This document shows, piece by piece, positions 14,242 through 61,780 of a stretch of 64,000 bases of DNA; the first letter of the stretch is position 1; each line of letters opens with the position of its first letter. The notes under the pieces were generated by a model. That model was not told where the DNA came from. It was given only the letters and a program-made list of their open reading frames with translations, and ran no database searches. This DNA comes from Cenarchaeum symbiont of Oopsacas minuta (GTDB taxonomy: Archaea; Thermoproteota; Nitrososphaeria; Nitrososphaerales; Nitrosopumilaceae). The stretch covers positions 36,068-100,067 of the forward strand of contig JAJIZT010000004.1 of NCBI GenBank assembly GCA_029948415.1. The letters are read 5' to 3'. Position numbers and translations under genes: made by a program.

Positions 14242-14322
14242 GTACAAGGTCAGCTACTCTATAATTTTGTGCGTAAATCTAGAACTTTCTTGATAATTAT
14301 AGGCAGGGACGTGATCTCATAT
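14242..14322 (+). mobile_element. 81-bp MITE, copy 1
   Basis: A non-coding element beginning GTACAAGGTCAGCTACTCT and ending with the imperfect inverted repeat GTGATCTCATAT. It is the same length as copies 2 (25121-25201) and 3 (61700-61780), with a shared core containing TTCTTGATAATTATAGGCAG. It sits between a hypothetical gene and proS, 47 bp upstream of the proS start, so it may now contribute the proS promoter or 5' region. Confidence 0.85.
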
Positions 14323-14369
14323 GTCTTTATTTTGCAAAGGCTCATAATACATGGTAGCATGTATCAAGC

Positions 14370-15836
14370 GTGAGCAAAGAGGAGATCGGCATTACGGCCT
14401 CCAAAAAAGACAATTTTAGCGAATGGTACACGCAGGTAGTTTTAAAATCCAAACTAGCTGATTATGCACCTGTAAAAGGACTCATCGTGTTACGGCCTGA
14501 TGGTTATTCGATATGGGAGTCACTAAAATCTTCACTTGATAAAAAACTTGGACGCCGTGGAGTTGGAAATGGATTTTTACCCACACTTATACCAGAGTCG
14601 CTTCTTGCCAAGGAAAAGAAACATTTTGCTGGATTTGATCCAGAAGTATTTTGGGTTACACATTCCGGTAAAGAAGAGATTGGAGACAAGCTTGCCTTAC
14701 GACCTACTTCGGAGACTTTGGCATACACGATGTATTCGAGATGGATAAAGAGTTGGCGTGATCTACCACTTCGCATAAATTTTTGGAATACTGCATTACG
14801 TGCAGAGATAAAAGCCACAAAACCATTTTTGCGCACGTCCGAATTTTTATGGCAAGAAGGACATACTGTTCATACAGACAGCAAAGATGCAAAAGATGAA
14901 GCTGATGCAATAATGAACATATACATAGAGACTGTAGAGAATGAACTTGCCATACCGGTGATCACTGGTAGAAAAAGCGAAAAAGAGCAGTTTGTTGGTG
15001 CAGAATACACCATAACAATGGAGTCCATGATGCCAGATGGTCGTGCCCTACAGATGGGTACATCTCACTTTTTGGGCCAAAATTTTTCAAAACCATTTGA
15101 GGTAAAATATGCAGACAAGGACAATGTCGAGAAATTTGCATGGCAGACATCATGGGGTGTTTCATGGAGACTTTTAGGAGCTATGATTATGGTTCATGGA
15201 GATGATCATGGGCTAATCTTACCCCCAAAGATGGCTCCAATTCAGACGGTCATAATACCCATCTATTATTCAAAACAAGATGAGATGGCAGTTATCTCAA
15301 AGGCAGAACAGATGCATAAAGAGATCTCAGGGATCGGAGTACGTGTACACATAGACAGAAGGGAAGGCATGACGCCAGGATTCAAGTATCATGATTGGGA
15401 GATGCGCGGGGTTCCATTGCGCATAGAGATTGGGCCAAGAGATTTGAAAGATGATAAATCAATATTTGCAAAGAGGACAGGTGGTAAAGAAAAGATTCCA
15501 CTCAAAGATACAGCTAGTCATGTAAAAACAGCACTAGATACAATCCAATCTGAGATGCTAAAAGCTGCAAGGACTATACTCTATGAAAATATGCACGATG
15601 CTACAACATATCAAGAATTCAAGTCGATACTTGGAATAAAAGATGATTTGGTTCGGGGTGGAGGATTTTTGCGATCCCCGTGGTGTGGTAAAACTATTTG
15701 TGAAGATGCAATAAAAGAAGAGACTGGGGCAGAGATTCGTGTCATACCAAACGATGAACATGTTTTAGATGATGCCAAATGTGTATACTGTGGCAAAGAT
15801 GCAGAACATATGCCACTTTTTGCAAGAGGTTACTAG
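14370..15836 (+). CDS. proS: Prolyl-tRNA synthetase (archaeal/eukaryotic type)
   Basis: A 488-residue class II synthetase without the bacterial editing insertion. Motif 2 is LRTSEFLWQEGHTVH, preceded by LRPTSETLAY (proline/ATP site). Motif 3 is GSWR-like in the region near LEIGPRDL. The C-terminal zinc-type domain has CVYCGKDAEHM and ends with a Tyr, as in archaeal ProRS. The start is a GTG (SKEEIGITASKKDNF). It charges tRNA-Pro in the cytoplasm. Confidence 0.95.
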   Translation: MSKEEIGITASKKDNFSEWYTQVVLKSKLADYAPVKGLIVLRPDGYSIWESLKSSLDKKLGRRGVGNGFLPTLIPESLLAKEKKHFAGFDPEVFWVTHSGKEEIGDKLALRPTSETLAYTMYSRWIKSWRDLPLRINFWNTALRAEIKATKPFLRTSEFLWQEGHTVHTDSKDAKDEADAIMNIYIETVENELAIPVITGRKSEKEQFVGAEYTITMESMMPDGRALQMGTSHFLGQNFSKPFEVKYADKDNVEKFAWQTSWGVSWRLLGAMIMVHGDDHGLILPPKMAPIQTVIIPIYYSKQDEMAVISKAEQMHKEISGIGVRVHIDRREGMTPGFKYHDWEMRGVPLRIEIGPRDLKDDKSIFAKRTGGKEKIPLKDTASHVKTALDTIQSEMLKAARTILYENMHDATTYQEFKSILGIKDDLVRGGGFLRSPWCGKTICEDAIKEETGAEIRVIPNDEHVLDDAKCVYCGKDAEHMPLFARGY

Positions 15837-15873
15837 CAAGGCGAATATATACAACTAGATATTCTGCATTTTT

Positions 15874-17184
15874 ATGGCATTACTTGAACCAAATCTAGAG
15901 ACCAAATTATTAAAAGATTTTGAGCGCATACGTGCCACCACAATTAATCTTGTAAAAACGTTAGAGTATGACGACTATGTAATTCAAACTGCACCATATA
16001 CGAGTCCCCCAAAGTGGCACATTGGACATACAAGCTGGATATATGAGGCAATAATGAACAAGATTGATTCAAAATGTGAGTTTTATTCTGCAGAGTTTTC
16101 CAAATACTTGAACTCGTATTATCAACAATATGGTAAACCACATAATAAAGCAGAACGTGGTATAATGTCAAGACCCACCATAAATCAAATATTCGAGTAT
16201 TCTGAAATTGTCAACAAACGTGTCAGAGATTTTGTGACATCGCATGATATAGATGCAAAGATTATCAAATTATTAACCATTGGATTACACCATGAATGTC
16301 AACATCAAGAACTGCTTGTATACGATCTGCAACATATGTTGGCAGAAAAATACAAGCCAATACAAAAAAACAACTCTCCTCAATCTATGCATGTTGATTC
16401 ACAAAAAACAGTGTACATGGATGGCGGTACATACCGTATGGGATACAATGGTAAAAAATTTTGTTATGATATCGAACTGCCAGAACACAATGTGTATCTC
16501 GAAGATTATCGTATCGACGCGTTTCCAGTTACATGTGGACAATATGTTGAATTTATCAATGACGCAGGTTACAAGAATTTTAGATATTGGCTTGCAGACG
16601 GATGGGAAAAAGTAAATGAAAATGGATGGAGTTGTCCAATGTATTGGACAAAATTAGACGGGAAATGGCACGTACGTGATTTTGCAGGGTTGCGACCAAT
16701 TGATCCTGATGAACCAGTCTGTAACGTAAGCTATTACGAGGCTAGCGCATATTGCAAGTGGGCAGATAAGAGACTGCCAACAGAAGCCGAATGGGAAAAA
16801 GCTGCAGTCTTTGATTCAGACAAGGATTGTAAGAGAGAGTATCCATGGGGAGTACAAGCACCTGATTCAACAAGAGCAAATCTATTAGAGTCTTACATAT
16901 GGAAACCCTCACGTATAGGATCATATCCGTCTAGTTCAAGTCCATCAGGATGCGAGCAGATGATTGGAGACGTGTGGGAGTGGACATCATCCGAGTTTAT
17001 CGGATATCCAAGATTCAAGTCTGAATTTGACGAATATAATGACAAATGGTTTACAGGTCAAAAAGTTCTCAGAGGTGGCTCATTTGGTACTCCAAGTATG
17101 TCGGTGCGTTCAAGCTATAGAAATTTTTTCAGACTAGATGAGAGATGGATGTTTGCAGGATTCCGATGCGCTCAAGATGTTTAG
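15874..17184 (+). CDS. egtB: EgtB-type sulfoxide synthase (ergothioneine biosynthesis)
   Basis: A 436-residue protein with an N-terminal DinB-like four-helix domain and a C-terminal FGE-sulfatase (C-type lectin-like) domain. The expected non-heme iron ligands are H52 (GHTSW) and H140/H144 in HHECQHQE. The C-terminal domain shows GGTYRMGYNG, RLPTEAEWEKAA, GDVWEWTSSEF and LRGGSFGTP and ends in FRCAQDV. EgtB joins a cysteine thiol to hercynine using O2. There is no fused methyltransferase, which argues against OvoA or fungal Egt1. A TATA-like GAATATATACA lies about 25 bp upstream, so it probably has its own promoter. Confidence 0.9.
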   Translation: MALLEPNLETKLLKDFERIRATTINLVKTLEYDDYVIQTAPYTSPPKWHIGHTSWIYEAIMNKIDSKCEFYSAEFSKYLNSYYQQYGKPHNKAERGIMSRPTINQIFEYSEIVNKRVRDFVTSHDIDAKIIKLLTIGLHHECQHQELLVYDLQHMLAEKYKPIQKNNSPQSMHVDSQKTVYMDGGTYRMGYNGKKFCYDIELPEHNVYLEDYRIDAFPVTCGQYVEFINDAGYKNFRYWLADGWEKVNENGWSCPMYWTKLDGKWHVRDFAGLRPIDPDEPVCNVSYYEASAYCKWADKRLPTEAEWEKAAVFDSDKDCKREYPWGVQAPDSTRANLLESYIWKPSRIGSYPSSSSPSGCEQMIGDVWEWTSSEFIGYPRFKSEFDEYNDKWFTGQKVLRGGSFGTPSMSVRSSYRNFFRLDERWMFAGFRCAQDV

Positions 17185-18200
17185 GTTGCTAGTGTAAGTG
17201 AAAAAAGATCATCTTTATCATGCCACATATTTTCAACTCTCATACCTGCCTGAGAAAGCATATGCTTTATTGCGTTTGACGTGTATTTGAACGAATTTTC
17301 CGTATGTACTAGCTCGCCTTTTTCAAAGACGGGGCATATGTTGGATTTTGGTATAGATACAACCTGTTTTTGTATGGATTTTAAGTACATGTTGATACAC
17401 ATATTTTTTTTATCATATACGACATGATGTTCAAATTGTTTCAAATCAAAGTCTGCTCCAAGCTCTTGATTTATACGTTCTAGTATGTTTTTGTTGAATC
17501 TAGCTGTAACTCCAATAGTATCATCATATGCAGCATGCAGAATCCTGGCGTCTTTTACCAAATCTAGTCCGACTAGAAACATATCTCCCTTGTGCATGCA
17601 CGAGCGTACCTTTTGTAAAAATGCCAACGCTTCACTTGGATTCATGTTACCAAGACTAGATCCCAAAAATGCAAACAAGGTTGGCACGTGTTTGATATTT
17701 TTAATCAATTCTAGACCTCCTTCATAAGTATCCACAATCCCTTTTACAGTCATGTTTTCATATGTATCAAGTAGAGGTAGGCAATTTTCTCCTATGACCT
17801 CAGATATATCAACTGGCATGTATTCGATGTAACGTCTACTAGCATCCATCGCATCTAATATCATCTGTGTTTTTATCGATGCTCCACTACCAAGTTCTAC
17901 AAGACGCATCACATCTCCAAGATGTGTAGCAAGGTCATCTGTGTGCATGTGAAGAAGTTTCGATTCAGTGCGTGCAATATAATATTCATCAAGATCACAG
18001 ATCTGCTCAAATAGTTCAGAACCAGCATCATCATAAAAAAATTTTGGATAAAGATATTTTGGTAAAGCAGTGAGTCCTTTTGCCACCTCGTGTGCAAACA
18101 CTTTTTCAGATTCTATAGATCTACGTTTTAGACATTCTAGTCGTTGGTTTATGATGTGGCGTTCATATTCAAGAATCAGTGTCTTTGCATCAGATGTCAA
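17181..18200 (-). CDS. egtD: EgtD-type histidine N-alpha-methyltransferase
   Basis: A 339-residue SAM-dependent methyltransferase that converts histidine to hercynine, the substrate of EgtB. Diagnostic segments are KFFYDDAGSELFEQICDL (about 53-70), EYYIARTES, VELGSGASIKT (SAM site) and YMPVDISE, then FLGSSLGNM. It starts at TTG (TSDAKTLILEYE). It is convergent with egtB, with 4 bp of overlap at the stop codons, so the two are transcribed separately yet physically linked. No egtA, egtC or egtE is visible nearby, so a short pathway using cysteine directly is plausible. Confidence 0.92.
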   Translation of the reverse strand: MTSDAKTLILEYERHIINQRLECLKRRSIESEKVFAHEVAKGLTALPKYLYPKFFYDDAGSELFEQICDLDEYYIARTESKLLHMHTDDLATHLGDVMRLVELGSGASIKTQMILDAMDASRRYIEYMPVDISEVIGENCLPLLDTYENMTVKGIVDTYEGGLELIKNIKHVPTLFAFLGSSLGNMNPSEALAFLQKVRSCMHKGDMFLVGLDLVKDARILHAAYDDTIGVTARFNKNILERINQELGADFDLKQFEHHVVYDKKNMCINMYLKSIQKQVVSIPKSNICPVFEKGELVHTENSFKYTSNAIKHMLSQAGMRVENMWHDKDDLFSLTLAT

Positions 18201-18479
18201 TACAGGCAGGCAAAAATAACATCATAAAACCCTATCTCATGTCCTGATGATGACTATTATTTTTAGATCGTTCACATCTAGATGTATCTGTAAAATTGGC
18301 ATGCATGTTTTTATTTTAAAAAATGATATTGATCGTCGATAAGATACTGTCTTGTTTTCGATATTTTTCGAAACTGTCACTTTAATCATATGATCTGCAA
18401 CATAATTGCAATTATACGCAAGAGTAAGTCATATCCACATTTGGTATTCTTGATATAACCGTAATTTCATATTGCACTT
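18201..18479. promoter_or_regulatory. 279-bp divergent intergenic region
   Basis: This AT-rich spacer separates divergent egtD and the ABC ATPase gene and must carry both promoters. I see a short TCGATATTTTTCGA inverted repeat (about 18358-18371) and a GATGATGA box, but nothing I can assign firmly. No ORF or RNA gene is evident. Confidence 0.3.
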
Positions 18480-19457
18480 GTGGATGATATTCTAGTTGTC
18501 AATGATTTGTGCAAATATTATGTAAAAAAGAATTTTTTTGGTAAAAAATCACTTCCAGTTAAAGCAGCAGATGGTATCTCTTTTTCAATAAAAGCAGGAA
18601 GTGTATTTGTTTTGGCAGGCGAATCAGGTTCTGGTAAATCCACCATAGCGAGATTGATACTAGGAGCTGAAGAGGCAGACCATGGTATGATTTACTTTAA
18701 TGGTAACCGTGTAGACTATGCAACAGGGAATGGAGTCAAAAAGATGCGTGCAGAATGTCAAATGGTGCATCAAAATCCATACGATTCTGTAAACCCTCGT
18801 ATGCGCATCTCTGATATAGTGATGGAACCATTGCATATACACCATTGGGGAAATAACAAAAAAGATAGAATGCAACGAATGTTTCAAGTATTACGCGAAG
18901 TAAAGCTAGAACCAGTTGAGGATATTGCCGAGATGTTTCCTCATCAGTTATCTGGAGGTCAAAGACAAAGAGTGGTATTAGCACGTGCTTTGACACTAAA
19001 ACCCAAAATTATCATAGCAGATGAACCCGTATCCATGCTAGATGTTTCAATCCGTGCCGAGATGCTCGGAATAATGGAATCGCTTCAAAAGAGATCAAAC
19101 ATTGCATTTTTGTACATTACTCACGATTTATCTACTGCAAAATACTTTGGGAATGAAATTGCCATAATGTACAAAGGTCGCATAGTAGAATTAGGTCCTG
19201 TACGCACTGTTCTTGACGATCCAAGGCATCCATATACACAAGCTCTCATAGACGCAGTCTCTGATCTAGATCCAAAAAACTTGAACAAGAAAAAAACCAT
19301 CAGAATATTGAACAATAAAACTAAAGATTTTGAAGGGTGTGCATTTCATCCAAGATGTCCATATGCAGTAGAGAATTGTATGAAAGAGCCAAAATTAAAA
19401 GAGATCGATGTGGATAGAAAAGTCTCATGTTTTGTTCCTATCAGAGCAAGAAGTTAA
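18480..19457 (+). CDS. OppF/DppF-type ABC transporter ATPase, orphan
   Basis: A 325-residue ATPase of the oligopeptide/nickel importer type with a GTG start. Walker A is GESGSGKST, the signature is LSGGQRQR, and Walker B is IIIADEP followed by the D-loop and H-loop (ITHD). The C-terminal oligopeptide extension has HPYTQALIDAV and a Cys cluster (GCAFHPRCPYAVENC, then C near the end) that in relatives binds a [4Fe-4S] cluster. Normally it pairs with OppD, two permeases and a binding protein. None is in this window, so partners must be elsewhere or lost. Confidence 0.88.
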   Translation: MDDILVVNDLCKYYVKKNFFGKKSLPVKAADGISFSIKAGSVFVLAGESGSGKSTIARLILGAEEADHGMIYFNGNRVDYATGNGVKKMRAECQMVHQNPYDSVNPRMRISDIVMEPLHIHHWGNNKKDRMQRMFQVLREVKLEPVEDIAEMFPHQLSGGQRQRVVLARALTLKPKIIIADEPVSMLDVSIRAEMLGIMESLQKRSNIAFLYITHDLSTAKYFGNEIAIMYKGRIVELGPVRTVLDDPRHPYTQALIDAVSDLDPKNLNKKKTIRILNNKTKDFEGCAFHPRCPYAVENCMKEPKLKEIDVDRKVSCFVPIRARS

Positions 19458-19485
19458 TAATCCAACATGTAGATTATAGTACGAT

Positions 19486-19980
19486 TTGGATAGAAAAATT
19501 GTTCTCGGGTTGATCTTGATAACAGTTATGATGTTGATCATTGTGTCAATTATGACGTACAATTACAACATAGACCAAAAAAATGCTAGAGGTCTAATAT
19601 TTGGTCACATGTTACAATCGATACAGAATAATTTAGAGACAGAGCAGATAGATTTTGATGCCAAACTCTCCGTTATGCGTAATAATAAAAGCACACTAGA
19701 AGAGTTTTCTATTGATGCAGAAAAGCATTTTACTGTAATGAAAGATCTCATAAGCAGATACGAAACGTTGGAACCACCGGAGCCTTACGAGTCAGCAGTA
19801 AAGTTTTTCAAACTCTCTACACAATCGCAGCTTGATCGAGATCGCCAAATAGTATTGTTCATAAAAACTGGCGATTCAGCATATGAGGCACGTGCAGACG
19901 ATCTTCATCAAGAATCGTTTGAATACGAGTTGGCAGCTTTGGCAGATTACAAAACGGCACAGACAGGACAAAATCCATAA
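19486..19980 (+). CDS. Membrane-anchored hypothetical protein
   Basis: A 164-residue protein with a TTG start, 28 bp after the ABC ATPase stop. Residues 4-24 (KIVLGLILITVMMLIIVSIM) form a single membrane anchor. The rest is helical and charged, reminiscent of extracytoplasmic sensor or four-helix domains, ending in a Gly/Gln-rich tail. No Cys and no enzyme motif. Family not recognised. Confidence 0.65.
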   Translation: MDRKIVLGLILITVMMLIIVSIMTYNYNIDQKNARGLIFGHMLQSIQNNLETEQIDFDAKLSVMRNNKSTLEEFSIDAEKHFTVMKDLISRYETLEPPEPYESAVKFFKLSTQSQLDRDRQIVLFIKTGDSAYEARADDLHQESFEYELAALADYKTAQTGQNP

Positions 19981-20008
19981 CCATACACTAGTAAATCTTG
20001 GATTTTTT

Positions 20009-20900: not shown

Positions 20901-20969
20901 ATTTGTCTTTTCTGTATAAACTCTAAAGCATTCTTCCCATTCACTGTTTGTCAGACGTCTACTCTTCAT

Positions 20970-21051
20970 GAAATGGATCAGTTATTGATATACTTGGATC
21001 GATATGATCGTGTGTTATTGACTAATTTGTTAGTAATGAGCTGACATCATA
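20970..21051 (-). repeat. Left-end fragment of the IS5-like element
   Basis: These 82 bp are nearly identical, in reverse complement, to 62250-62332, the left end of the IS5-like element. They end in the same inverted-repeat type (GCTGACATCATAC). Only the terminus remains, next to the IS66-like copy A. Confidence 0.85.
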
Positions 21052-21361
21052 CAATCATTCTAGGTGTAAAAATTCAATATGTCTTATCCTGACTTGGCAA
21101 AAGCTCGCAAATTAAGTTGAAATTTGGAAAAACACAAGATTTACCAGTGCATACACAAGATTTTGATAAAAAAACTTATGCATGACAACAATTATTAGCA
21201 TTTACATATGATATAAAACATGAATGCTATACTGTATATTTTACCTCCAACTATATTGAATAGATTATAGGTGTAAAAATTTGCCTAAAAACAACATGAA
21301 CTTTATCATGTATGCACAATGCCAAATGTACGCATTTGTGTATGTACTATAGGGTCCTAGT
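21052..21361. other. Non-coding stretch with a repeated 14-mer
   Basis: I see no gene in these 310 bp. The only structure is TAGGTGTAAAAATT, present at about 21061-21074 and again at about 21269-21282, possibly another element edge. Confidence 0.45.
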
Positions 21362-21592
21362 ATGGTCGACTATAAACTGACAAAAGAGGACAAGGATAGA
21401 ATTGAACTTTTGCATATCGTGGAAAAAAAAGGACTCAAACCTCTTAATCTTGAACAATTAAAACGACTTGAAGAACTGATGACAGAAAAAGACTATAGCC
21501 ATAATAAAAAAGCACAAAAATCAAAAATAAAATTGCTCAACAAGATAAATGTGGCAATATATGAATCATCAGAAGGAAAAGATGGAATATGA
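21362..21592 (+). CDS. Small hypothetical protein, 76 aa
   Basis: A Lys/Glu-rich, probably helical protein (MVDYKLTKEDKDRIELL). No recognised domain. It lies 18 bp upstream of the YyaL-like gene on the same strand, so the two are probably co-transcribed. Confidence 0.55.
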   Translation: MVDYKLTKEDKDRIELLHIVEKKGLKPLNLEQLKRLEELMTEKDYSHNKKAQKSKIKLLNKINVAIYESSEGKDGI

Positions 21593-21610
21593 AGTCAAGA
21601 GGTATTAAAA

Positions 21611-23641: not shown

Positions 23642-23643
23642 GA

Positions 23644-23970: not shown

Positions 23971-24006
23971 GAATTCTGGATATTATTGTTTAAATTTAAC
24001 TGTACT

Positions 24007-24282: not shown

Positions 24283-24579
24283 ATCATATGTATAATATGC
24301 GGAGCTATTTGTGTCAATCTGTAATCTAAAAATATGTGATCATATACATCAGTATCACCATAAACTATTTTACTTTCTTGAATTTACCTAGACTTTTTGT
24401 ATAAAGATCATTAAATCAGTACGTATGCTCTAATCATAGATCTTAATTATGTACCTATATCTATCGGTTAAAAGAGTAGATTTTGACATATTTCAAGCAC
24501 GCCTCAACTTTAGACAATTAATAATTATACTTTGGTTACACAAGTGGTTTTTTATGTGAGATTTGAACACATAATATTC

Positions 24580-25035
24580 ATGTCTAAATGGTATATAGAA
24601 GAAGATGAAGATTATTTTCGCATTTTTGATTCCAAAAAAGAGATTGCAGGATATTTTGATCCAGAGTATGGTCAAAATAATAACCAAAACGAATCCGAGG
24701 AGATTGAGCGCATAGTACGCGAGCATATTCCAGTTCCAGGAGGATATCTGATGGTGCCGTTTGTAAAATTTGGAATATTTGATACAGACTATGAATCAGA
24801 TCTGAATTCACTAGAAGAGAAAATAGAGTCTGTGATCACAAGAATAAAAATATGGAAAATATTTATAGCAAAAGACAACATGGATCACCAAATTCGTATA
24901 TCACATACGGATCATGATATGCTTAGTATAACGTTTCCAGTCAAGTTTGAAAAACCCATTCCAGTAGATAAAAAACTAATACTGCCATATCTAGAACCAA
25001 TGCTTGAAACATTAAGTAGAGATGGACTGCTCTAA
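24580..25035 (+). CDS. Hypothetical protein, 151 aa
   Basis: Starts at the ATG at 24580 (MSKWYIEEDEDYFRIFDSKK). An in-frame TTG at 24532 would add a hydrophobic tail of doubtful value. It is acidic and mixed alpha/beta, with a central PVPGGYLMVPFVKFG segment and no Cys. I do not recognise the family. The gene is isolated between two intergenic regions. Confidence 0.6.
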   Translation: MSKWYIEEDEDYFRIFDSKKEIAGYFDPEYGQNNNQNESEEIERIVREHIPVPGGYLMVPFVKFGIFDTDYESDLNSLEEKIESVITRIKIWKIFIAKDNMDHQIRISHTDHDMLSITFPVKFEKPIPVDKKLILPYLEPMLETLSRDGLL

Positions 25036-25120
25036 AATGCGAGTTTTTTACCCGATATAATACAACACTGCAATATGATATTTTGTTGTCTAAAACGATC
25101 TCACATCTATAGGTTGAATG

Positions 25121-25201
25121 GTATGAGGTCAGCTACTCTGTATTTTTGTGTGTAAATGCAGAACTTTCTTGATAATTATAGGCAGAGACTTGACCTCTTA
25201 C
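25121..25201 (+). mobile_element. 81-bp MITE, copy 2 with likely target duplication
   Basis: The most regular copy: it begins GTATGAGGTCAGCTACTCTG and ends TTGACCTCTTAC. The flanks show GTTGAAT on both sides (25113-25119 and 25202-25208), consistent with a 7-bp target-site duplication if one extra G belongs to the element. Nothing else is seen in the remaining bases between 25036 and 25329. Confidence 0.85.
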
Positions 25202-25329
25202 GTTGAATAGTATCGTACAATTATATGCTCTTTTTGTATCAAATTCTAATCTATCAAAAAAGATAACATATTCAATTAGACGTATTTACGGCAAATATTT
25301 TATAAATATCAATAATATAGATTCTACAT

Positions 25330-26361
25330 ATGACAAAAATGCGTGCCATGGTTTTATCAAAGATTGGACCCATCGAAGAATCTCCACTAAAGTTAACCTG
25401 GATAGAAAGACATGAGATAAAAAGACCAAACGAGATTTTGTTAAAGATCAAAGCATGTGGAGTATGTCGATCACAACTACATGGTATTGAAGGAGACTGG
25501 AAAGATTCTGGAATACCATCAGATCTTCCCATAGTTCCTGGACATGAGATAGTGGGATCTATAGTAGAGATTGGAAAAAACGTTACAAGATTCAAAGTAG
25601 GAGATCGCGTAGGGGTCTCACCACTATTAGAATCGTGTAGAGTATGTGATTATTGTAAAAGTGGTAAAGAGCAGCTATGCGAATCCATGGACATACTTGG
25701 TGAGACACTAAAGGGAGGGTATTCAGAATATGTTACCGTTTCAGAAGACTTTGCTACAAAGATTCCCTCTGGAATGAAATCAGAGTATGCAGCCCCCCTC
25801 TTTTGTGCAGGGGTTACAGCATACGGTTCGATAAGAGCAAGCGAACCATCACCTGGGAAAAAAATTGGAATATTTGGCATAGGTGGTGTAGGTCACATGG
25901 CTATACAGTTTGGAAAACTAGAAAAATTGGATATGCTTGCAGTATCTAGAAACAAAAAACATCTAGAGCTTGCAAAAAGACTTGGAGCTCTACATACGGT
26001 ATCTTATTCTGATGCATCTAGTACTTTAAATGAAATAAAATCAAAGACAGGTTTGCTAGATGCTGCAATAGTTTTTGCACCATCAGAAGATGTTACAGAA
26101 CTTGCAATAAACGCTGTCAAAAAAGGCGGTCTTGTAGTAATTGCTACAGTAGGAAAGATAAAAGGATTTGTAGCCTTTGATGAAAAGACCATCCGAGGTA
26201 CGCTAATAGGCTCTCGCCAAGACATGGAAGACGTTGTAAAAATTGCATACGAAAATAACATAGAGGTAGTATACGAAACGCATCCTCTTGAAAAAGCAAA
26301 TAAAGTTCTCGCAAAACTAAAAAACTCTCAAATAGAGGCAAGAGCCGTGTTGATTCCTTGA
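25330..26361 (+). CDS. Zinc-dependent alcohol dehydrogenase
   Basis: A 343-residue medium-chain dehydrogenase/reductase. Catalytic zinc ligands lie in CGVCRSQLHGIEG and GHEIVG. The structural zinc is bound by the CRVCDYCKSGKEQLC segment with four Cys. A GIGGVGHMA Rossmann motif binds NAD(P). It oxidises an alcohol or reduces an aldehyde, with no substrate clue in the neighbourhood. The start is ATG 25330, with a second Met three codons in. Confidence 0.9.
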   Translation: MTKMRAMVLSKIGPIEESPLKLTWIERHEIKRPNEILLKIKACGVCRSQLHGIEGDWKDSGIPSDLPIVPGHEIVGSIVEIGKNVTRFKVGDRVGVSPLLESCRVCDYCKSGKEQLCESMDILGETLKGGYSEYVTVSEDFATKIPSGMKSEYAAPLFCAGVTAYGSIRASEPSPGKKIGIFGIGGVGHMAIQFGKLEKLDMLAVSRNKKHLELAKRLGALHTVSYSDASSTLNEIKSKTGLLDAAIVFAPSEDVTELAINAVKKGGLVVIATVGKIKGFVAFDEKTIRGTLIGSRQDMEDVVKIAYENNIEVVYETHPLEKANKVLAKLKNSQIEARAVLIP

Positions 26362-46479: not shown

Positions 46480-46630
46480 TTATCGTTTTTTCATATATTG
46501 TGAACCTAGTACAGTTATCGATATGATTATTATCAGTGTTGGAATTATTAAAAATGACTCGTTTAATTTTACTAGTTGGTTGTATGTGTCTATTTGACCC
46601 ACATAGTAATATGGTGCATATGCATATGTA
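46480..46630 (-). pseudogene. C-terminal fragment of a membrane protein
   Basis: The minus strand encodes a Tyr-rich stretch, then NESFLIIPTLIIIISITVLG and a short basic tail ending at a stop at 46480. This is the kind of C-terminal anchor seen on surface proteins. The 5' part is missing where the IS66-like C-half begins at about 46631, so the gene was probably interrupted. Confidence 0.35.
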
Positions 46631-47072
46631 GACAATTTTGATAGTGTTGCAGTAACTGATTGGTATCGCGTGTACAAGGGCGAGGAATGCATCAGCGATG
46701 CCTAGGCTCACGAGCTGCGTGCTGCTAAACACATGATGGCTCATATCGGAAACTCTATGAAGAGATGTGCATACTGTTTGAGAATGCCAATTGTGATGCA
46801 TGTGTTTGAATACACATTTGCTTGCATGTTGGATGGATATCATAGTTTTGAAATGCAGAATCTGATCAAACGGTTGGAGAATGTAATAAAAGATCTATAT
46901 GCATTTATTGAGCATAAAGACATTCCATCTACAAACAATGCCTGCCGAGTGTGATGTTGTGGTTCGCCGTAAGATAAACAGTATATGAAAAGAATCAAAC
47001 TTTCTAACGTGTGTTTTGACATGGAAAGCACACGGTAAGAGCGTCTTTGAAGAGGTGTTATGTATTGTTTAA
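46631..47072 (+). pseudogene. IS66-like transposase, C-terminal half (inverted)
   Basis: The plus strand reads DNFDSVAVTDWYRVYKG, then a frameshifted QRCWAHELRAAKHM segment, then IPSTNNA and VVVRRKINSI, and ends GKSVFEEVLCIV-stop at 47072. These are the catalytic C-half motifs of IS66 transposases. Stops and frameshifts make it inactive. It points toward the N-half at 47093-47867 (minus strand) instead of continuing it. Confidence 0.75.
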
Positions 47073-47092
47073 TAGCTTATCTCATACGTATC

Positions 47093-53254: not shown

Positions 53255-53259
53255 TTGCC

Positions 53260-53733: not shown

Positions 53734-53734
53734 A

Positions 53735-54904: not shown

Positions 54905-54928
54905 CTAACGCTCAACCTTCAATATGCT

Positions 54929-54938
54929 CTTATAAACC
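54929..54938 (-). promoter_or_regulatory. TATA box of the ribosomal protein/secY operon
   Basis: On the minus strand GGTTTATAAG ends about 24 bp upstream of the rpl18 ATG. The spacing suggests a leaderless or near-leaderless mRNA, common in this phylum. Confidence 0.6.
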
Positions 54939-55853: not shown

Positions 55854-57118
55854 TTCTTACGCCAACCAAACATCGAGTGTTTTTTAGTTTTATGTATATC
55901 GGGCTTGCCTTTTTTTATCCAATCTCGTATCTTCTCTGCCATATATGCAGCATCTGTATCGTTCTCTGGTGGAGTTTCATCGTATAGATCTGAATATGTT
56001 TTAATATCATCGTCTGTTATCCCTTCAAACGGATCATGACCGTCAGTTTGTTTTTTCTGATCTGCATCAGATTTAAGTTTTGATTCCATGGTAGATTGTA
56101 TCGTCTCTGAGATTTGTGTTTTAGTTTGAATTTTTGAGTTTGGTATAGATTCAGATTTTGTATCTAAATTTTCCAAAACCGGTTTTTTCTCTTTTAGAGT
56201 CTGTGTCAAGGTATCACCAAAGACAGATTTTACAAATACGTTCTTGTTAAATGGTTCAAGGTCTTCATACTCTTGACCTGTTCCAATATACATAATTGGT
56301 GTAGAGGTTGCTGCTATAATTGATAGTGCAGCTCCACCACGTGAATCTGCGTCGGTCTTTGTAAGTATGGAAGCGTCAAAATTTGTATACTTGTAAAACT
56401 CTCGAGCTTGATTTATTGTATCGTTGCCTGCCAACGAATCTCCTACGAATATTTTAAAATCAGGTTTTACCACATTTGTTATTTTTTCAATCTGTGCCAT
56501 AAGGTTTTGGCTTGTCTGCATACGCCCTGCAGTATCTATCAGTACGCAGTCCACTTTGTGGGATTTTGCATACAAAACAGCATCTCGTGCTACTGCAGCC
56601 GGATCGGACCCATAGTTTTGTGCCACGAGTTTCACTCCAAGACGGTTTGTGTGTTCACGTATCTGCTCTATCGCCCCAGCTCTAAACGTATCAGCTGCAG
56701 CTATGACGACGGAGATTTTTTGTTCTTTTAGCATATGTGCCATCTTTGAGAGCGTGGTAGTTTTACCAGTTCCATTTATTCCTAAAAATAATACAAGATA
56801 TGGCTCTTGAAATTTATCACGTTTTTTTTCAATGTTTGCAACTAGCTCGCATGTTCCAGCATTATCAAACATCTCTGATACGGTCGTTACAAGTCCTTTA
56901 CGAATGTGTTCGATCATGTGTTTTTTTTCCACATTAGATCCGATCATGGATTCTTGTAATCTTGATTTTATTAATTCTACAGCTTCCACTGCAACATCTG
57001 CATCCATCAAGGCAAACTCTAGATCAGATATAGCAGAATCTACATCCTGCTCTTTTAATTCTCGCTCCCCTAAACTTTTAACTGCCGTAGCAAATGCAGA
57101 TTTTAGTTTTTCAAACAT
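55850..57118 (-). CDS. ftsY: Signal recognition particle receptor FtsY
   Basis: A 422-residue FtsY. An N-terminal helical domain (residues 1-95) precedes the SRP GTPase NG-type domain, with LFLGINGTGKTTTLSKMA, DTAGRMQTSQNLM and TKTDADSRGGAALSI. After the domain closes near residue 300 (TGQEYEDLEPF) there is a roughly 120-residue tail. It is rich in Lys/Thr/Ser and acidic residues and ends with KKGKPDIHKTKKHSMFGWRK. Most FtsY proteins end at the G domain. The start overlaps pfdA by 8 bp. Confidence 0.93.
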   Translation of the reverse strand: MFEKLKSAFATAVKSLGERELKEQDVDSAISDLEFALMDADVAVEAVELIKSRLQESMIGSNVEKKHMIEHIRKGLVTTVSEMFDNAGTCELVANIEKKRDKFQEPYLVLFLGINGTGKTTTLSKMAHMLKEQKISVVIAAADTFRAGAIEQIREHTNRLGVKLVAQNYGSDPAAVARDAVLYAKSHKVDCVLIDTAGRMQTSQNLMAQIEKITNVVKPDFKIFVGDSLAGNDTINQAREFYKYTNFDASILTKTDADSRGGAALSIIAATSTPIMYIGTGQEYEDLEPFNKNVFVKSVFGDTLTQTLKEKKPVLENLDTKSESIPNSKIQTKTQISETIQSTMESKLKSDADQKKQTDGHDPFEGITDDDIKTYSDLYDETPPENDTDAAYMAEKIRDWIKKGKPDIHKTKKHSMFGWRKK

Positions 57119-57545
57119 TGGTTTTCGCCGAAGGCTTTGCTGCAGCTTTACCCATATTTGAGATCACCTGCCTTCCTTGTTCCATACGCTCTATTGCTTC
57201 ATGCTTGCGTGAAGCAGTATCTTGCATTGCCACATCTATCTCTTTAATTCTAGATTCAATATAGTTTATGGCAGAACCATGTTCTTTTTCCACTGCAATA
57301 CCAGCACCGATATTTACTATGAGTTTCGCATTTGGATATATCTCTGTTCTAGCAAATGCACCTAGTCCGAGTGGAACAAGTGATTTAACAGGCGTTGTAC
57401 CCTCTAGGGATTTTATAGATTGGGTCGCAGCTATGGCTTCACGCAGTACTGCCTCAAGACTAGATTCACGCCTGTTCAATTCTGTAATATGGCTTTCTAA
57501 CATCTGCATCTCGTATAGTAACTGCTGGGTTTGCTCCTGACTCAT
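57111..57545 (-). CDS. pfdA: Prefoldin alpha subunit
   Basis: A 144-residue coiled-coil chaperone. The N-terminal helix (QQLLYEMQMLESHITEL) and C-terminal helix flank two beta-hairpins with PVKSLVPLGLGAFARTE and IVNIGAGIAVEK. With prefoldin beta it forms a hexameric holdase that delivers unfolded chains to the thermosome. It is the first gene of the pfdA-ftsY-argF operon. Confidence 0.93.
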   Translation of the reverse strand: MSQEQTQQLLYEMQMLESHITELNRRESSLEAVLREAIAATQSIKSLEGTTPVKSLVPLGLGAFARTEIYPNAKLIVNIGAGIAVEKEHGSAINYIESRIKEIDVAMQDTASRKHEAIERMEQGRQVISNMGKAAAKPSAKTNV

Positions 57546-57563
57546 ACAGTATGTAGTCTTTGT

Positions 57564-57573
57564 GATTATAAAT
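57564..57573 (-). promoter_or_regulatory. TATA box of the pfdA-ftsY-argF operon
   Basis: ATTTATAATC on the minus strand ends about 19 bp upstream of the pfdA ATG, again suggesting a very short leader. Confidence 0.5.
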
Positions 57574-57625
57574 TCATTTCACAAGCAATATTTTAAAAAA
57601 ACCATAAATATGAAAAATAAAAAAA

Positions 57626-58246
57626 TTAGTTTGCCTTTGAGAGCCTAGAGTCTATTTCATCCCAGTTTATGACGTTCCACCATGCAGCGATATAATCTGG
57701 ACGTTTGTTTTGGTATTTGAGATAGTATGCGTGTTCCCATACGTCACATCCTAGTAATGGCACTAATCCATTTGTTCTTGGACTTGTCTGATTTGGCATC
57801 TGTGTATATTCGACCTTTGATGTAGACTTGTTGTATACTAGCCAACCCCATCCGCTACCTTGTATTACAGCAGTTGTAGAGGAAAACTTTTCCTTGAATG
57901 CATCAAAGCTGCCAAAAGAGGTATTTATCGCATCAGCGAGTGCACCTCCAGGTGATCCGCCACCGTTAGATTTCATGCTATTCCAAAACAGTCTATGGTT
58001 GTCAAATCCTCCACCGTTAAAGTTTACTGCACCTCGTATCTCATCAGGTATAGACTTTATGTCGGCTAGAATCTCCAAGATGTCCTTTGATTGTATCTCA
58101 GATGGACATTTCTCTAGTGCTGCATTGAGCTTGTCAGTATACGCTTGGTGGTGTTTTGTGTGGTGTATCTCCATAGTGCGTGCGTCTAAATGCGGTTCTA
58201 GTGCATCATACGTGTATGGCATTTCAGGTAGTGTGTATTTATTCAT
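57626..58246 (-). CDS. sod: Superoxide dismutase (Fe/Mn)
   Basis: A 206-residue Fe/Mn SOD. Metal ligands are H28 (MEIHHTKHHQ), H84 (FDNHRLFW) and the Asp/His of CDVWEHAYYLKYQNKRPDY. GGGFDNHRLFWNSM and GSGWGWLVYN are typical. Metal preference is not decidable with confidence. It dismutates superoxide, relevant in an oxygen-using ammonia oxidiser. A CTTAATAAG element lies about 25 bp upstream. Confidence 0.94.
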   Translation of the reverse strand: MNKYTLPEMPYTYDALEPHLDARTMEIHHTKHHQAYTDKLNAALEKCPSEIQSKDILEILADIKSIPDEIRGAVNFNGGGFDNHRLFWNSMKSNGGGSPGGALADAINTSFGSFDAFKEKFSSTTAVIQGSGWGWLVYNKSTSKVEYTQMPNQTSPRTNGLVPLLGCDVWEHAYYLKYQNKRPDYIAAWWNVINWDEIDSRLSKAN

Positions 58247-58456
58247 ACACTAGCTTACCAGGCTCTACTTATTAAGTTCACGGTAGTTTTGTAGATGCAT
58301 CATCATCCCGAGTATGCTAGGAAAATTAAAGTGTGCAAGATCACATATGAGAGAGAGATTGATCTCTTTTTTCACATATCAAAGCATGGATTTATTTTCA
58401 GATATATGCCGACTAGAATGTAAACTAAATATCCAACCTCTTCAAAACTACTCTAT

Positions 58457-61156
58457 ATGACTAACAAAAATGATATACAAGGACGATTTTCAGCAGATCC
58501 TGACAGATATTACAAAGTAAGACTCTTTGAAGAACAAGGATTTGTTAGGAGATCATGTACTATATGTAAGAGATTCTTTTGGGCGCTAGATGGCAGAGAC
58601 AGATGTCCAGATCACTCTCAAGATGTCTATTCATTTATCGGTGATCCACCAACTTCTAAGCGGTTTGATTATTCTGAATCATGGGTTCAGATTGCAGATT
58701 TTTTTAAAAAGAATGATCACACACAGATTGGTAGATATCCAGTTGTATGTAGATGGCGCGATGATCTATACTTTACTATAGCATCCATTGTTGATTTTCA
58801 GAGAAAGGTCGGATCAAATATTACATTTGAATTTCCTGCAAATCCACTCATAGTACCCCAAACATGTCTGCGCTTCAAAGATATGGAGAATGTGGGAGCT
58901 ACGGGTAGACATTTTTCTAGTTTTTGTATGATAGGGCAACATAGTATTGCAGATTCAAAAGGATATTGGAAAGATGAATGTATCAATTTAGATTATTTAT
59001 TACTTACAGATCAATTTGGAATTAAAAAAGAAGAGATTGTTTTTGTAGAAGATGTTTGGGAAGGGGGAGGGTCATTTGGATCGTCACTTGAGTATTTTGT
59101 ACGAGGTCTAGAGCTTGGCAACGCTGTCTTTACAGAGTTTCAAGGAAGCGTAGACTCTCCAACCACATTAGACAAGCGCATCATAGACATGGGTGCAGGG
59201 TTGGAACGTTTTGCATGGATAACTATGGGTACCCCTACCGCATATGATTGCTGTTTTGGATCTGCCATTACAGAATTGTTGGATAAGATAGGATGTGATT
59301 TACAAGATCCAAAACTTGTATCATATTTTACTGGTGTTGCAAAAAACATAGACAGAGTTGGACTTGCACAAGCACGCAAGATAGCCATGGCAGATGCTGG
59401 ATTTGACTCAAACCAAATACAAAAAACAATCAATCCGTTAGAAGATGCGTATACGGTAGCAGATCATATCAGAACGTTAGTATTTGCAATATCTGATGGA
59501 GCACTTCCAAGCAATGTAGGAGGCGGATACAATCTAAGAATGCTTCTTCGACGCGCAGTAGCAGCTGCAGGTAGAATAGGCATTGGACGTGACTTTACAT
59601 GGCTAGTTGATTCTCACATAGACTATCTTGTAAAAACGTATCCAGAATTGACACAAACGCGCGATGATGTTAAAAAAATATTGAATATAGAAACAGGTAG
59701 ATATGATCAGTCAAAGGAACGCATGGAAAAAATTGCACGCAGTATAAAATCAGAGCCATCTACAAAAGATTTGGTTAGATTGTATGAATCAGATGGAATA
59801 ACACCAGATTATTTGTTAGAGACCAATGTCATAAAGTGTATTCCAGAGGATTTTTACTCAAAGCTCTCAGATCTTCATCAATCAAGAAAACTCGAATCCG
59901 TCAAACCTTTTGAAGAGTTACGCAGAATACCAGATACAAAACTAGTCTACTATACAAAAAAAGCACACGATGTAGAATTTGAGGCAAAAGTACTCAAAGT
60001 GATCAACGGTGGAGTCATATTAGATAAAACTAATTTTTATGCAAGAGGCGGTGGACAAGAGCCGGACTTTGGAACAATAGACGGATATAATGTCACAGAT
60101 GTTACAAAACACGGTAGAGTCGTTATTCATTCACTAAAAGAAGATGTGTTCAAAGAAGGTAAAATTGTAAAATGTTGTATAGACATGACTAGGAGGAAGA
60201 ACATATCTATACATCACACCTGCACTCACATTCTCAATGCATCTGCAAGAAAGATCCTAGGATCATGGATTTGGCAACATTCTGCATTCAAAGAAGACAA
60301 ACATGCAAGACTCGATATCACTCACCACTCTGCATTATCAGAAAAAGAGATATCGCAGATAGAAACAGAAGCAAATTCTGTTATACGCAATAATTTACAG
60401 ATCTCGATAAACGAAGTTGAACGTGGAGATGCAGAACAAGAATATGGGTTTAGAATTTATCAAGGAGGTGTTGTTCCAGTAAATGCTGTACGTATTGTAA
60501 AGATTGAGGGTATCGATGTAGAAGCATGTGGAGGCACACATATTTCAAGAACAGGTGATGCTGGACTGTTGAAGATAATTCGTACCGAACGCATACAAGA
60601 TGGGGTGGTGCGCCTAGAATTTGTTGCAGGTAGTAGAGCTCTTGAGTATATGCAGAAACAAAATGATGCAATATCAAATATTGCGCACGTCCTAGGAGCA
60701 GATAGGCACAAAGTTACAGAATCTGTTACAAAGTCACAAGAAGATGCCGAATATACTCGACGTCGGTTAAAACACCTTATGCGACGCACTAAAGAATATG
60801 TTACAAATGCAGCAATACAAAATGCAGAACGAATAGACACCACACTATTTTATGGTATGATTGATGATGAGATGGATGCAGAATACCACATAATGATAGG
60901 ACAATCTGCAGTCGAATTAGAGCCAAATATGGTATACTGTGCCCTAATTGTCACAGCCGATCAGAGCGTAAAGATAGTCGTATATTGTGGCAAAAAAGCT
61001 CAGAAAACAATCAAAGCAGGAGTCATTGTAAAGGAGATGTCAAAAATTTTAGGAGGTTTTGGTGGCGGCTCTGATACATTTGCACAAGGTGGAAGTAAGA
61101 ATGCATCGAGATCTTCAGATGCCATCGATTTAGCCCGTAAACTAGTCTTTGGATGA
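58457..61156 (+). CDS. alaS: Alanyl-tRNA synthetase (archaeal type)
   Basis: An 899-residue class II synthetase. The catalytic domain is N-terminal. The editing domain carries the HHTCTHILNASARKI and CGGTHISRTGD zinc-type sites. The C-terminal glycine-rich GGFGGGSDTFAQGG segment closes the oligomerisation domain. It starts MTNKNDIQGRFSADPDRYYK. It charges tRNA-Ala and clears mischarged Ser/Gly. A 210-bp spacer with a T-rich hairpin-like stretch separates it from sod. Confidence 0.96.
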   Translation: MTNKNDIQGRFSADPDRYYKVRLFEEQGFVRRSCTICKRFFWALDGRDRCPDHSQDVYSFIGDPPTSKRFDYSESWVQIADFFKKNDHTQIGRYPVVCRWRDDLYFTIASIVDFQRKVGSNITFEFPANPLIVPQTCLRFKDMENVGATGRHFSSFCMIGQHSIADSKGYWKDECINLDYLLLTDQFGIKKEEIVFVEDVWEGGGSFGSSLEYFVRGLELGNAVFTEFQGSVDSPTTLDKRIIDMGAGLERFAWITMGTPTAYDCCFGSAITELLDKIGCDLQDPKLVSYFTGVAKNIDRVGLAQARKIAMADAGFDSNQIQKTINPLEDAYTVADHIRTLVFAISDGALPSNVGGGYNLRMLLRRAVAAAGRIGIGRDFTWLVDSHIDYLVKTYPELTQTRDDVKKILNIETGRYDQSKERMEKIARSIKSEPSTKDLVRLYESDGITPDYLLETNVIKCIPEDFYSKLSDLHQSRKLESVKPFEELRRIPDTKLVYYTKKAHDVEFEAKVLKVINGGVILDKTNFYARGGGQEPDFGTIDGYNVTDVTKHGRVVIHSLKEDVFKEGKIVKCCIDMTRRKNISIHHTCTHILNASARKILGSWIWQHSAFKEDKHARLDITHHSALSEKEISQIETEANSVIRNNLQISINEVERGDAEQEYGFRIYQGGVVPVNAVRIVKIEGIDVEACGGTHISRTGDAGLLKIIRTERIQDGVVRLEFVAGSRALEYMQKQNDAISNIAHVLGADRHKVTESVTKSQEDAEYTRRRLKHLMRRTKEYVTNAAIQNAERIDTTLFYGMIDDEMDAEYHIMIGQSAVELEPNMVYCALIVTADQSVKIVVYCGKKAQKTIKAGVIVKEMSKILGGFGGGSDTFAQGGSKNASRSSDAIDLARKLVFG

Positions 61157-61316
61157 ATCATTAGTACAATACTTGGATTTTAGTAACTGTCTAGAGTACC
61201 ATCCTCAAGATATTAGACCGTATGTATATTACGACTTTTTCATTACTAATTTTTGTACATGACATTTCACATATACTGTGCTACACTTTTACCTCATACC
61301 ATGTCTTTACCTCACA
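61157..61316. repeat. Intergenic region with an IS66-terminus-like match
   Basis: No gene is seen. Bases 61172-61196 (CTTGGATTTTAGTAACTGTCT and the following bases) match the left edge of IS66-like copy A at 19998-20020, including GTAACT. This may be another element terminus or a hot spot. Confidence 0.5.
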
Positions 61317-61458
61317 TCATTCTCCATATCTATGATTTTGTTGTATGTATAATGCGATCTCTTGACGTATATTTGTCCAGTTTTTTGCCATTATTGCATT
61401 TACCATAGACGCGTTTGAGTGTAGAGAATGCAATCTCAGCTGCCCTGTCTTTTGCCAT
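61317..61458 (-). pseudogene. IS5-family transposase C-terminal remnant
   Basis: The minus strand reads MAKDRAAEIAFSTLKRVYG in one frame, then MAKNWTNIRQEIALYIQQN in a second, ending at TGA (61317-61319). Together these resemble the conserved C-terminus of DDE transposases, with a frameshift between them. No intact element surrounds it. The 241 bp to the MITE hold no gene I can support. Confidence 0.55.
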
Positions 61459-61699
61459 AATTATTATCCTTTAACCATTTTTTTTGATTTTCTAATCTTT
61501 GATTACGATCAAGCTTTGAAATAACTATATGTGCCCAAGAGATCAAAGAATTCAGATGATTGTCTAAATGACAAATCAAAGTCCAAAAGAAAATCTCAAA
61601 ATGCAAACAAAAACACTAGAGCCTGTTGGGCGAAAGTCCATGTTCGTTAGAGTCTACGTGTACAAGGAATTCTCCAGATAGTAATGGTGGATAACAAAA

Positions 61700-61780
61700 G
61701 TATGAGGTCACGTCCCTGCCTATAATTATAAAGAAAGTTATGCATTTATGCACAAAAATACAAAATAGCTGACCTCATAC
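61700..61780 (-). mobile_element. 81-bp MITE, copy 3 (opposite orientation)
   Basis: Identical in length to copies 1 and 2 and reverse-complementary in orientation. Perfect 11-bp ends, GTATGAGGTCA and TGACCTCATAC. It lies 470 bp from the IS5-like element, the probable source of the family's ends. Confidence 0.88.

What the first reader, a model, noticed from the sequence alone, without database searches (positions are those of the whole stretch)
14242..61780. A three-copy 81-bp MITE family sharing ends with a decayed IS5-like element
Copies at 14242-14322, 25121-25201 and 61700-61780 are all exactly 81 bp and share a core (TTCTTGATAATTATAGGCAG type) and GTATGAGGTCA ends. The first 35 or so bases, including TTTTGTG(C/T)(A/G)TAAAT, match the right end of the IS5-like element at 62250-63632, so that element or a relative probably mobilised them. 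Copy 2 shows GTTGAAT on both flanks, a possible target duplication. As far as I know, such MITEs are little described in this phylum.
Basis: partly seen in the sequence, partly recalled or inferred. Interest (0 to 1): 0.7.

Follow-up and report, generated by a model that had tools for sequence, protein, structure and literature searches.

The report
MITE that hosts an RNA-guided transposon
The 81-bp repeats are small passive jumping elements, about sixty in this archaeal genome, that carry the end signals of an IS66-type transposon and also appear to serve as the landing site for a second, RNA-guided transposon whose predicted guide RNA matches them.

Summary
The 81-bp repeat is real and is a MITE, but the IS5-like element did not mobilise it. 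The genome holds at least 61 full-length copies. Of 49 copies checked, 19 have perfect 8-bp target duplications, against 0 of 2,000 mispaired controls. Ends (GTATGAGGTCA) and duplication length match a resident IS66-family IS with one intact transposase gene. The "IS5-like element" at 62250-63632 is a nest: a true IS5-type IS (about 62336-63563) between an IS66 left end and a fragment of a loaded MITE.

The unexpected part: the centre of the MITE is the exact empty site of an IS110-family element of IS1111 layout. Six MITEs carry it; one loaded MITE equals an empty copy over the 78 compared bases. The RNA predicted downstream of its recombinase gene contains guides matching the MITE on both sides of the insertion point. 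Guides track targets: 15 of 18 guide-target combinations pair at 8 or 9 of 9 positions, G-U included. Most of the homologous RNAs found in related genomes fit too. A second IS110 subfamily sits in a second MITE family. All of this is sequence inference; nothing was tested at the bench.

The parts
14242..14322 (+). MITE-A copy 1 (81 bp), intergenic; no target duplication
   Evidence: ORFs end at 14237 and start at 14370
25121..25201 (+). MITE-A copy 2 (81 bp), intergenic
   Evidence: long ORFs 24532-25035 and 25330-26361 flank it
25113..25120 (+). left target duplication of copy 2, GTTGAATG (7 of 8 match right side)
25202..25209 (+). right target duplication of copy 2, GTTGAATA
61700..61780 (-). 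MITE-A copy 3 (81 bp), centre GTTAT|GCATTT; lies beside an IS110-A fragment
61522..61698 (+). left-end fragment of IS110-A
   Evidence: C4:97589-97765, 84% to query 42-212
   Evidence: (query 1298-1383 repeats at other places, among them IS66 left ends)
62336..63563 (-). the true IS5-type IS (broken transposase ORFs); 14 near-full relatives elsewhere in the genome
   Evidence: DDE_Tnp_1; IS5_2, 131.9 bits, cut-off 140
63564..63592 (-). last ~29 bp of IS110-A (right end, ATCTATGTGC... read on -)
63593..63632 (-). right half (40 bp) of a MITE-A
   Evidence: C4:99660-99699, model 1-40
20906..21052 (-). IS66 left-end fragment (GTATGATGTCAGCTCAT...)
   Evidence: C4:56973-57119
46622..47087 (+). IS66 right-end fragment
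   Evidence: C4:82689-83154

Best explanation
The 81-bp repeats are a MITE family (MITE-A). Shown by sequence: terminal inverted repeats GTATGAGGTCA and 8-bp duplications, as in the resident single-gene IS66-family IS (1,418 bp, 439-aa transposase). Inferred: that transposase copied them in trans. The centre of the MITE, AAGAAAGTTC-T-GCATTTACG, is the empty insertion site of IS110-A, an IS110-family element of IS1111 layout (T|AACCATATGTGC ... GCACATAGA|T). The RNA predicted just downstream of its recombinase gene folds into a target loop and a donor loop like a bridge RNA/seekRNA. In the target loop, one side (GUAAAUGUA) is complementary to the top strand right of the cut and the other (GUUCU) reads the left side; the donor loop matches the element's own end. 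Inferred: the recombinase-RNA complex inserts IS110-A into MITE copies, in the same orientation in all six loaded copies, and excises again, which would explain why the centre is the most variable spot of the MITE. A second subfamily (IS110-B) does the same with a second MITE family (MITE-B).
For: MITE: 61 full copies; 8-bp duplications, 19 of 49 exact and 22 of 49 with at most one mismatch, control 0 of 2,000 exact and 1 of 2,000 with one mismatch. Mobiliser: ends shared with the IS66 IS, 439-aa ORF intact in L062, Pfam IS66 1.7e-34, NCBIfam IS66 2.2e-62, TACTTTTT on both sides of L062 (flanks). Landing site: six MITEs have both halves around IS110-A; loaded L067 and empty L029 have 0 differences in 78 bases. 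Element: intact 360-aa and 369-aa IS110 recombinases. RNA: four sequences fold better than shuffles (z -2.1 to -2.9); the consensus structure of 24 sequences places both target guides in one internal loop. Guides: 15 of 18 unique guide-target combinations pair at 8-9 of 9 counting G-U; 148 of 162 pairs in all, 0 of 20,000 permutations reach this. Compensatory changes: guide A with target T and guide G with target C in loaded MITEs; solo copy L084 at another target pairs 9 of 9. Left guide: 56 of 84 pairs, 151 of 20,000 permutations. Relatives: RNA model E<1e-5 in 7 of 32 loci, each starting from 3 bases before to 78 bases after the end of the recombinase match; guide pairs 8 of 9 with the flank in L167, L178, L166, L170, 7 of 9 in L164; combined p 2e-4 over 7 with L168 as a miss. 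Donor guide equals the right-end hexamer in A, B and 5 of 7 relatives. Centre is the most variable five-column window, H 0.85 against 0.24 elsewhere.
Against: Three of 18 combinations pair poorly: L085 and L097 6 of 9, L098 7 of 9. The pairing register was set by eye for each subfamily (A includes the core T, B starts one base later), the combinations are not independent by descent, and the pooled permutation partly reflects the difference between A and B: A alone 111 of 20,000, B alone 1,459 of 20,000. The left guide is weaker: L085 and L143 pair 1-2 of 6. In the relatives the best of six registers was taken, and L164 and L165 are unremarkable alone (fractions 0.11 and 0.23); L167 does not show the donor hexamer and L168 shares only five bases at a divergent end. 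The consensus fold does not include the donor hairpin, which appears only in single-sequence folds. The only open IS110-A gene found (L084) now has a guide for a non-MITE target. No Rfam family matches the RNA. The subterminal repeat is short, 6-7 bp. No expression or movement was tested; trans-mobilisation by IS66 rests on shared ends and duplication length.
Confidence: 0.85

Rival explanations
1. MITE-A arose as an internal-deletion product of the ~1.3-1.7 kb loaded element (GTATGAGGTCA ends with IS110 recombinase inside), so the loaded form is ancestral and the 81-bp form is a deletion, not a landing site.
For: Loaded forms carry both MITE halves and two of six have perfect 8-bp duplications.
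Against: The 81-bp form is the precise empty site (single T core); IS110-A also exists outside MITEs (L084 and others); loaded copies resemble different MITE variants (L067 = L029; L068 and L080 are 2-3 changes from others). Precise excision of IS110 would look the same, so the order of events is open.
Confidence: 0.2
2. The IS5-like element at 62250-63632 mobilised the MITE.
For: ~40 bp match at the right edge of that interval.
Against: The 14 other near-full copies of that IS begin at query 53-70 and end at 1226-1309 of 1383, so the edges are not part of it; its own ends are ACTTAGTTGC; the shared bases are a MITE half and the IS110-A right end.
Confidence: 0.02
3. The 81-bp unit is an ancestral structured RNA or regulatory element rather than a mobile element.
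For: Imperfect inverted repeat; two window copies are intergenic.
Against: 8-bp duplications, not found in 249 other family genomes, no Rfam match in the window at gathering scores, some copies lie inside other mobile elements (L025 inside an IS110-A, L067 inside an IS66 copy).
Confidence: 0.02
4. Guide-target complementarity reflects recombination of element ends with flanks rather than RNA guiding.
For: Some copies are chimeric (L085, and the hybrid at 62250-63632).
Against: The guides lie ~190 bp from the end, on both sides of a hairpin, in the order reported for IS1111 seekRNAs; compensatory changes in two subfamilies and matching flanks in relatives.
Confidence: 0.06

Closest known systems
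IS1111-group IS with seekRNA / IS110 bridge RNA (PMC11187229, PMC11208160; passages read)
   Same: IS110-family recombinase, non-coding region downstream of the gene, two-part target guide with the top-strand complement 5' of the bottom-strand match, target repeated in the genome
   Different: Archaeal host; target is a MITE; several natural guide variants matched to target variants within one genome; subterminal repeats only 6-7 bp
IS4321/IS5075, IS1111-family IS that target Tn21-family terminal inverted repeats (title seen in reference lists, paper not read)
   Same: An IS of this group uses another transposon as its site; IS110-B here hits the TIR of MITE-B
   Different: Here the hosts include non-autonomous MITEs; IS110-A hits the MITE centre, not the TIR
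IS66 family (ISPpa5a and ISPpa7 listed with 8-bp repeats in PMC3281130, passages read)
   Same: IS66 transposase, 8-bp duplication
   Different: One transposase gene, no accessory ORF of 100 aa or more seen; ends GTATGAGGTCA
Bacterial IS-derived MITEs, e.g. the Cardinium IS982 MITE (PMC9769881, abstract and outline read)
   Same: Lineage-specific MITE kept mobile by a resident IS
   Different: Only ends, not internal sequence, are shared with the IS; additionally a target for an RNA-guided IS

Membership tests
MITE | Short, no transposase gene, terminal inverted repeats | tested here: met
   77-85 bp, 35 of 49 exactly 81; TIR GTATGAGGTCA
MITE | Target duplications at dispersed copies | tested here: met
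   19 of 49 exact 8 bp, 22 of 49 with <=1 mismatch
MITE | Resident autonomous element with the same ends | tested here: met
   IS66 IS, intact ORF in L062
MITE | Movement in trans by that transposase | not testable with these tools
   inferred from ends and duplication length
IS66 family (mobiliser) | DDE_Tnp_IS66 transposase | tested here: met
   PF03050 1.7e-34; NF033517 above cut-off
IS66 family (mobiliser) | 8-bp target duplication | tested here: met
   L062 flanks TACTTTTT on both sides, read; of the degenerate copies, L059, L060, L061 and L063 show none
IS66 family (mobiliser) | Accessory ORFs beside the transposase (multi-ORF structure, called typical in PMC3281130) | tested here: not met
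   L062 shows one ORF of >=100 aa; that single-gene members exist is recalled, from no call
IS110 family | DEDD + Transposase_20 recombinase | tested here: met
IS1111 group | Long non-coding region downstream of the gene | tested here: met
IS1111 group | Top-strand complement 5' of bottom-strand match in the RNA | tested here: met
   order as in PMC11187229
IS1111 group | Subterminal inverted repeats (7-17 bp in PMC11208160, usually 11-13 bp in PMC11187229) | tested here: inconclusive
   A: TATGTGC 7 bp, B: ATGTGC 6 bp
IS1111 group | RNA expressed and bound to the recombinase | not testable with these tools
   needs RNA-seq or pull-down

The most novel reading that the evidence does not exclude
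In this archaeon RNA-guided IS110 elements are specialised parasites of other transposons: IS66-type and DDE-type transposases spread MITEs as landing pads, the IS110 guide RNAs have been re-programmed repeatedly to track pad variants, insertion-excision cycles diversify the pad centre, and loaded MITEs can move as one unit by the IS66 machinery, carrying the RNA-guided recombinase along.
Probability: 0.35. Interest if true: 0.75.

Novelty: new variant of a known kind. Interest (0 to 1): 0.6.

Why it matters
In the two papers I saw, bridge RNA/seekRNA systems were worked out with bacterial elements and a few targets. Here one archaeal genome holds two IS110 subfamilies, many copies, their empty and filled sites and matched guide variants, so natural re-programming can be followed step by step. 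It suggests an RNA-guided element using dispersed MITEs, a target that multiplies by itself, and offers ready-made natural guide-target pairs for testing archaeal recombinases.

Tried and rejected
IS5 as mobiliser: rejected. Exact core pattern in the 84,980-genome collection: 0 matches, own genome possibly left out; in viral contigs: 0. Rfam on three loci: one chance-level match, E 0.97; Rfam on the window at gathering scores: none. IS66 DNA in the family: matches of at most 162 bp in 11 other genomes; IS66 protein: 24 of 250 genomes including own, next best 45% identity. Literature: ten searches listed no paper whose title points to MITEs as IS110/IS1111 targets or to IS66 MITEs in archaea; one search was swamped by papers on mites (20 of 71 shown), most listed papers were not opened, and only the held open-access library was covered. 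Passages of PMC3189936 and PMC2246112 gave nothing on this point. Whether loaded MITEs move as a unit could not be decided: two of six have perfect duplications, which insertion into an existing MITE would also give. Three combinations (L085, L097, L098) do not fit and were kept in the counts. In one search, 30 rows contain five repeats of one physical copy under another locus id (25 copies by my reading); the permutation used 18 unique combinations; one internal junction of a tandem duplication in L068 was dropped, and for L067 the outermost flank was used. In one search, 3 of 48 matches (E>1e-15) were dropped and 4 loci added, giving 49; one of the 49 (L058) may be an assembly duplicate of window copy 3. 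One search aligned 36 of the 49. Relative L184 (RNA E 8e-5) was looked at but not scored.
Full report
What is there. The three window copies are exact 81-bp units. The genome (1.63 Mb, 11 contigs; the window is C4:36068-100067) holds many more: a sequence model built from 36 copies gives 84 matches at E<=0.001, 61 full-length and 23 halves (recounted). This is a lower bound, since 150 of 1,745 first-look candidates were scored. Of 249 other genomes of the same family none has the unit, apart from one 26-bp match at E=7e-4.

It is a mobile element. Of 49 copies with flanks, 19 have perfect 8-bp direct repeats and 22 have at most one mismatch; among lengths 4-11 only 8 stands out, and mispaired flanks gave 0 exact in 2,000. 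Window copy 2 has 7 of 8; copies 1 and 3 have none. The ends are GTATGAGGTCA. Of GTAYGAGGTCA there are 136 occurrences against 2 for the reversed control.

The mobiliser. Pairs of these ends about 1.4 kb apart enclose an IS66-family IS. Copy L062 (C1:959857-961274, 1,418 bp) has an open 439-aa transposase, IS66 by Pfam (1.7e-34) and NCBIfam (2.2e-62, above cut-off), and its flanks read TACTTTTT on both sides. The five other own-genome matches that were scored carry stops. The MITE shares 11 bp at one end and 14 bp at the other with this IS, not the interior, so I take it to be mobilised in trans rather than a simple deletion derivative; this step is inferred. The 8-bp duplication of IS66 elements is in PMC3281130 (table passage).

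The supposed IS5-like parent. The interval 62250-63632, used as a query, matches 14 near-full copies elsewhere; these begin at query 53-70 and end at 1226-1309 of 1383. So the true IS5-type IS is about 62336-63563, with ends ACTTAGTTGC, DDE_Tnp_1 and IS5 family by NCBIfam just under cut-off. On one side lies an IS66 left end; on the other the last ~29 bp of an IS110 element plus the right half of a MITE. The outer flanks show no duplication. I read this as recombination between two IS5 copies, which is inference.

The MITE as a landing site. Elements of 1.3-1.7 kb begin with the MITE's left 42 bp and end with its right 39 bp. Between them lies an IS110-family element: DEDD_Tnp_IS110 and Transposase_20. 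The same element also sits outside MITEs, which fixes its ends as T|AACCATATGTGC ... GCACATAGA|T. One solo copy, L084, has an intact 360-aa gene (IS110 family RNA-guided transposase 3.8e-61). Taking the element away in thought leaves ...AAGAAAGTTCT-GCATTTACG..., the 81-bp MITE. Six MITEs have both halves around IS110-A, all six in the same orientation; 11 further halves lack a partner. The halves of loaded L067 are identical to the empty copy L029 at a different place, 0 differences in 78 bases. Two of the six loaded MITEs have perfect 8-bp duplications.

The guide RNA. Downstream of the recombinase gene is a ~160-nt conserved region. It folds into an outer stem, an inner stem and an apical hairpin, with an internal loop between the last two; the free-energy z-scores of four sequences are -2.1 to -2.9 and RNAalifold recovers the same target loop on 24 sequences, with 3 of 22 pairs showing double changes; it does not recover the donor hairpin. 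The 5' side of the loop reads GUAAAUGUA, complementary to T-GCATTTAC right of the cut with one G-U pair; the 3' side reads GUUCU, the same as the left flank. That order is the one reported for IS1111 seekRNAs (PMC11187229, passages), and the downstream location is the IS1111 one (PMC11208160, passages). A second loop holds ATAGAT, equal to the element's right end.

Guides follow targets. One search lists guides and flanks of the copies found in the own-genome loci I held. One search scores them in one register for each subfamily, chosen by eye: 18 unique guide-target combinations, 148 of 162 pairs counting G-U, 0 of 20,000 permutations as good; 15 of 18 pair at 8 or 9 of 9. Inside loaded MITEs, guide GUAAAUAUA goes with target GTATTTAC and GUAAAUGUA with GCATTTAC or ACATTTAC. 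L084, at a different site, has guide GCCACUAUA and flank TATAGTGGT, 9 of 9 with one G-U. The pooled test partly reflects the difference between A and B: subfamily A alone gives 111 of 20,000 permutations, B alone 1,459 of 20,000 (its targets are nearly the same). L085, L097 and L098 do not fit (6, 6 and 7 of 9). The left guide is less strict: 17 of 19 copies pair at 4 or more of 6, and 14 unique combinations give 56 of 84 pairs, reached by 151 of 20,000 permutations.

Second system. IS110-B (369-aa intact gene in L102, 58% identical to A) has the left part of a second MITE family at its left end in L139, L142, L143, L145 and L146. MITE-B is ~101 bp with ends TAGACCTTATGCAC; one search finds 20 matches. 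In other B copies the left flank is a different repeated sequence, in L102 beside another transposase-like ORF. Empty MITE-B copies read ...AATTCATT|ATGCATACGATCTA, the exact empty site, and the B guides CUUAUGCAU, CUUGUGCAU and CGUAUGCAU pair with the right flank, with compensatory changes in L102 and L143.

Relatives. IS110 relatives occur in 25 of 250 family genomes including the own one. The RNA model finds homologues at E<1e-5 in 7 of 32 relative loci searched; each starts between 3 bases before and 78 bases after the end of the recombinase match. In L167, L178, L166 and L170 the guide pairs 8 of 9 with the sequence at the conserved right end, in L164 7 of 9, in L165 6 of 9, taking the best of six registers; the fraction of positions in the locus that do as well is 0.010-0.025 for the first four, 0.11 and 0.23 for the last two. 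L168 has a different right end (CCATAAGGT) and was counted as a miss in the combined test (p=2e-4), although its best-pairing site is at that end. The donor guide repeats the right-end hexamer in A, B and 5 of 7 relatives; L168 shares five bases and L167 does not fit.

Traces of traffic. In 36 aligned MITEs the most variable five-column window is the IS110 junction (mean entropy 0.85 against 0.24 for the other 76 columns), and insertions against the consensus, of 1 or 4 bp, occur only there; small deletions also occur at columns 16-22 and 69. Copy 3 of the window has GTTAT|GCATTT, as expected if the right-end AT replaced the CT core on excision; this is suggestive, not proof.

Assessment. The MITE as such is an ordinary new family. 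The pairing of MITEs with re-programmable RNA-guided elements in one archaeal genome is a new variant of a known behaviour: IS1111 members are known to sit in repeats and in transposon ends (references seen). My ten searches listed no report of MITE targets. The host was not identified by name; that it is an archaeon rests on window proteins above NCBIfam cut-offs for the archaeal 2-oxoacid:ferredoxin oxidoreductase alpha subunit and the CDC48 family, 2 of 10 ORFs scanned that point this way.

Noticed in passing
C2:73057-73346, C7:7298-7587, C1:962935-963237, C1:782336-782554 (locus L069): A second, ~220-300 bp internally deleted IS66 derivative (left ~144 bp and right ~55-63 bp of the IS, with part of 142-215 repeated in three of the four), another MITE-like family with the same ends.
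   Followed up: partly
C1:595096-595180 and 595216-595300 (L028): Two 85-bp MITE copies 35 bp apart with the same sequence, both with four extra bases at the centre that equal the IS110-A right end (AGAT); only one has an 8-bp duplication.
   Followed up: partly
window 61700-61780 and C8:11692-11772 (L058): Identical MITE copies with the same 25-bp left flank on two contigs; C8 continues into Ns, so this may be an assembly duplicate.
   Followed up: no
L084 (C1:181068-182369): The only open IS110-A gene found lies next to, and apparently interrupts, a tandemly repeated gene that reads like a plastocyanin-type protein (my reading of the translation, not searched).
   Followed up: no
L068:401-2121 and L067:1268-2725: Loaded MITEs with tandem duplications of the IS110 right-hand region (about 360 bp and 108 bp), doubling all or part of the guide RNA region.
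   Followed up: partly
window 61299 (-) and L077 2442-2545: Repeated sequence around GTATGAGGTAAAAGTGTAGC..., seen interrupted by IS110-A in L092; another dispersed repeat not classified.
   Followed up: no
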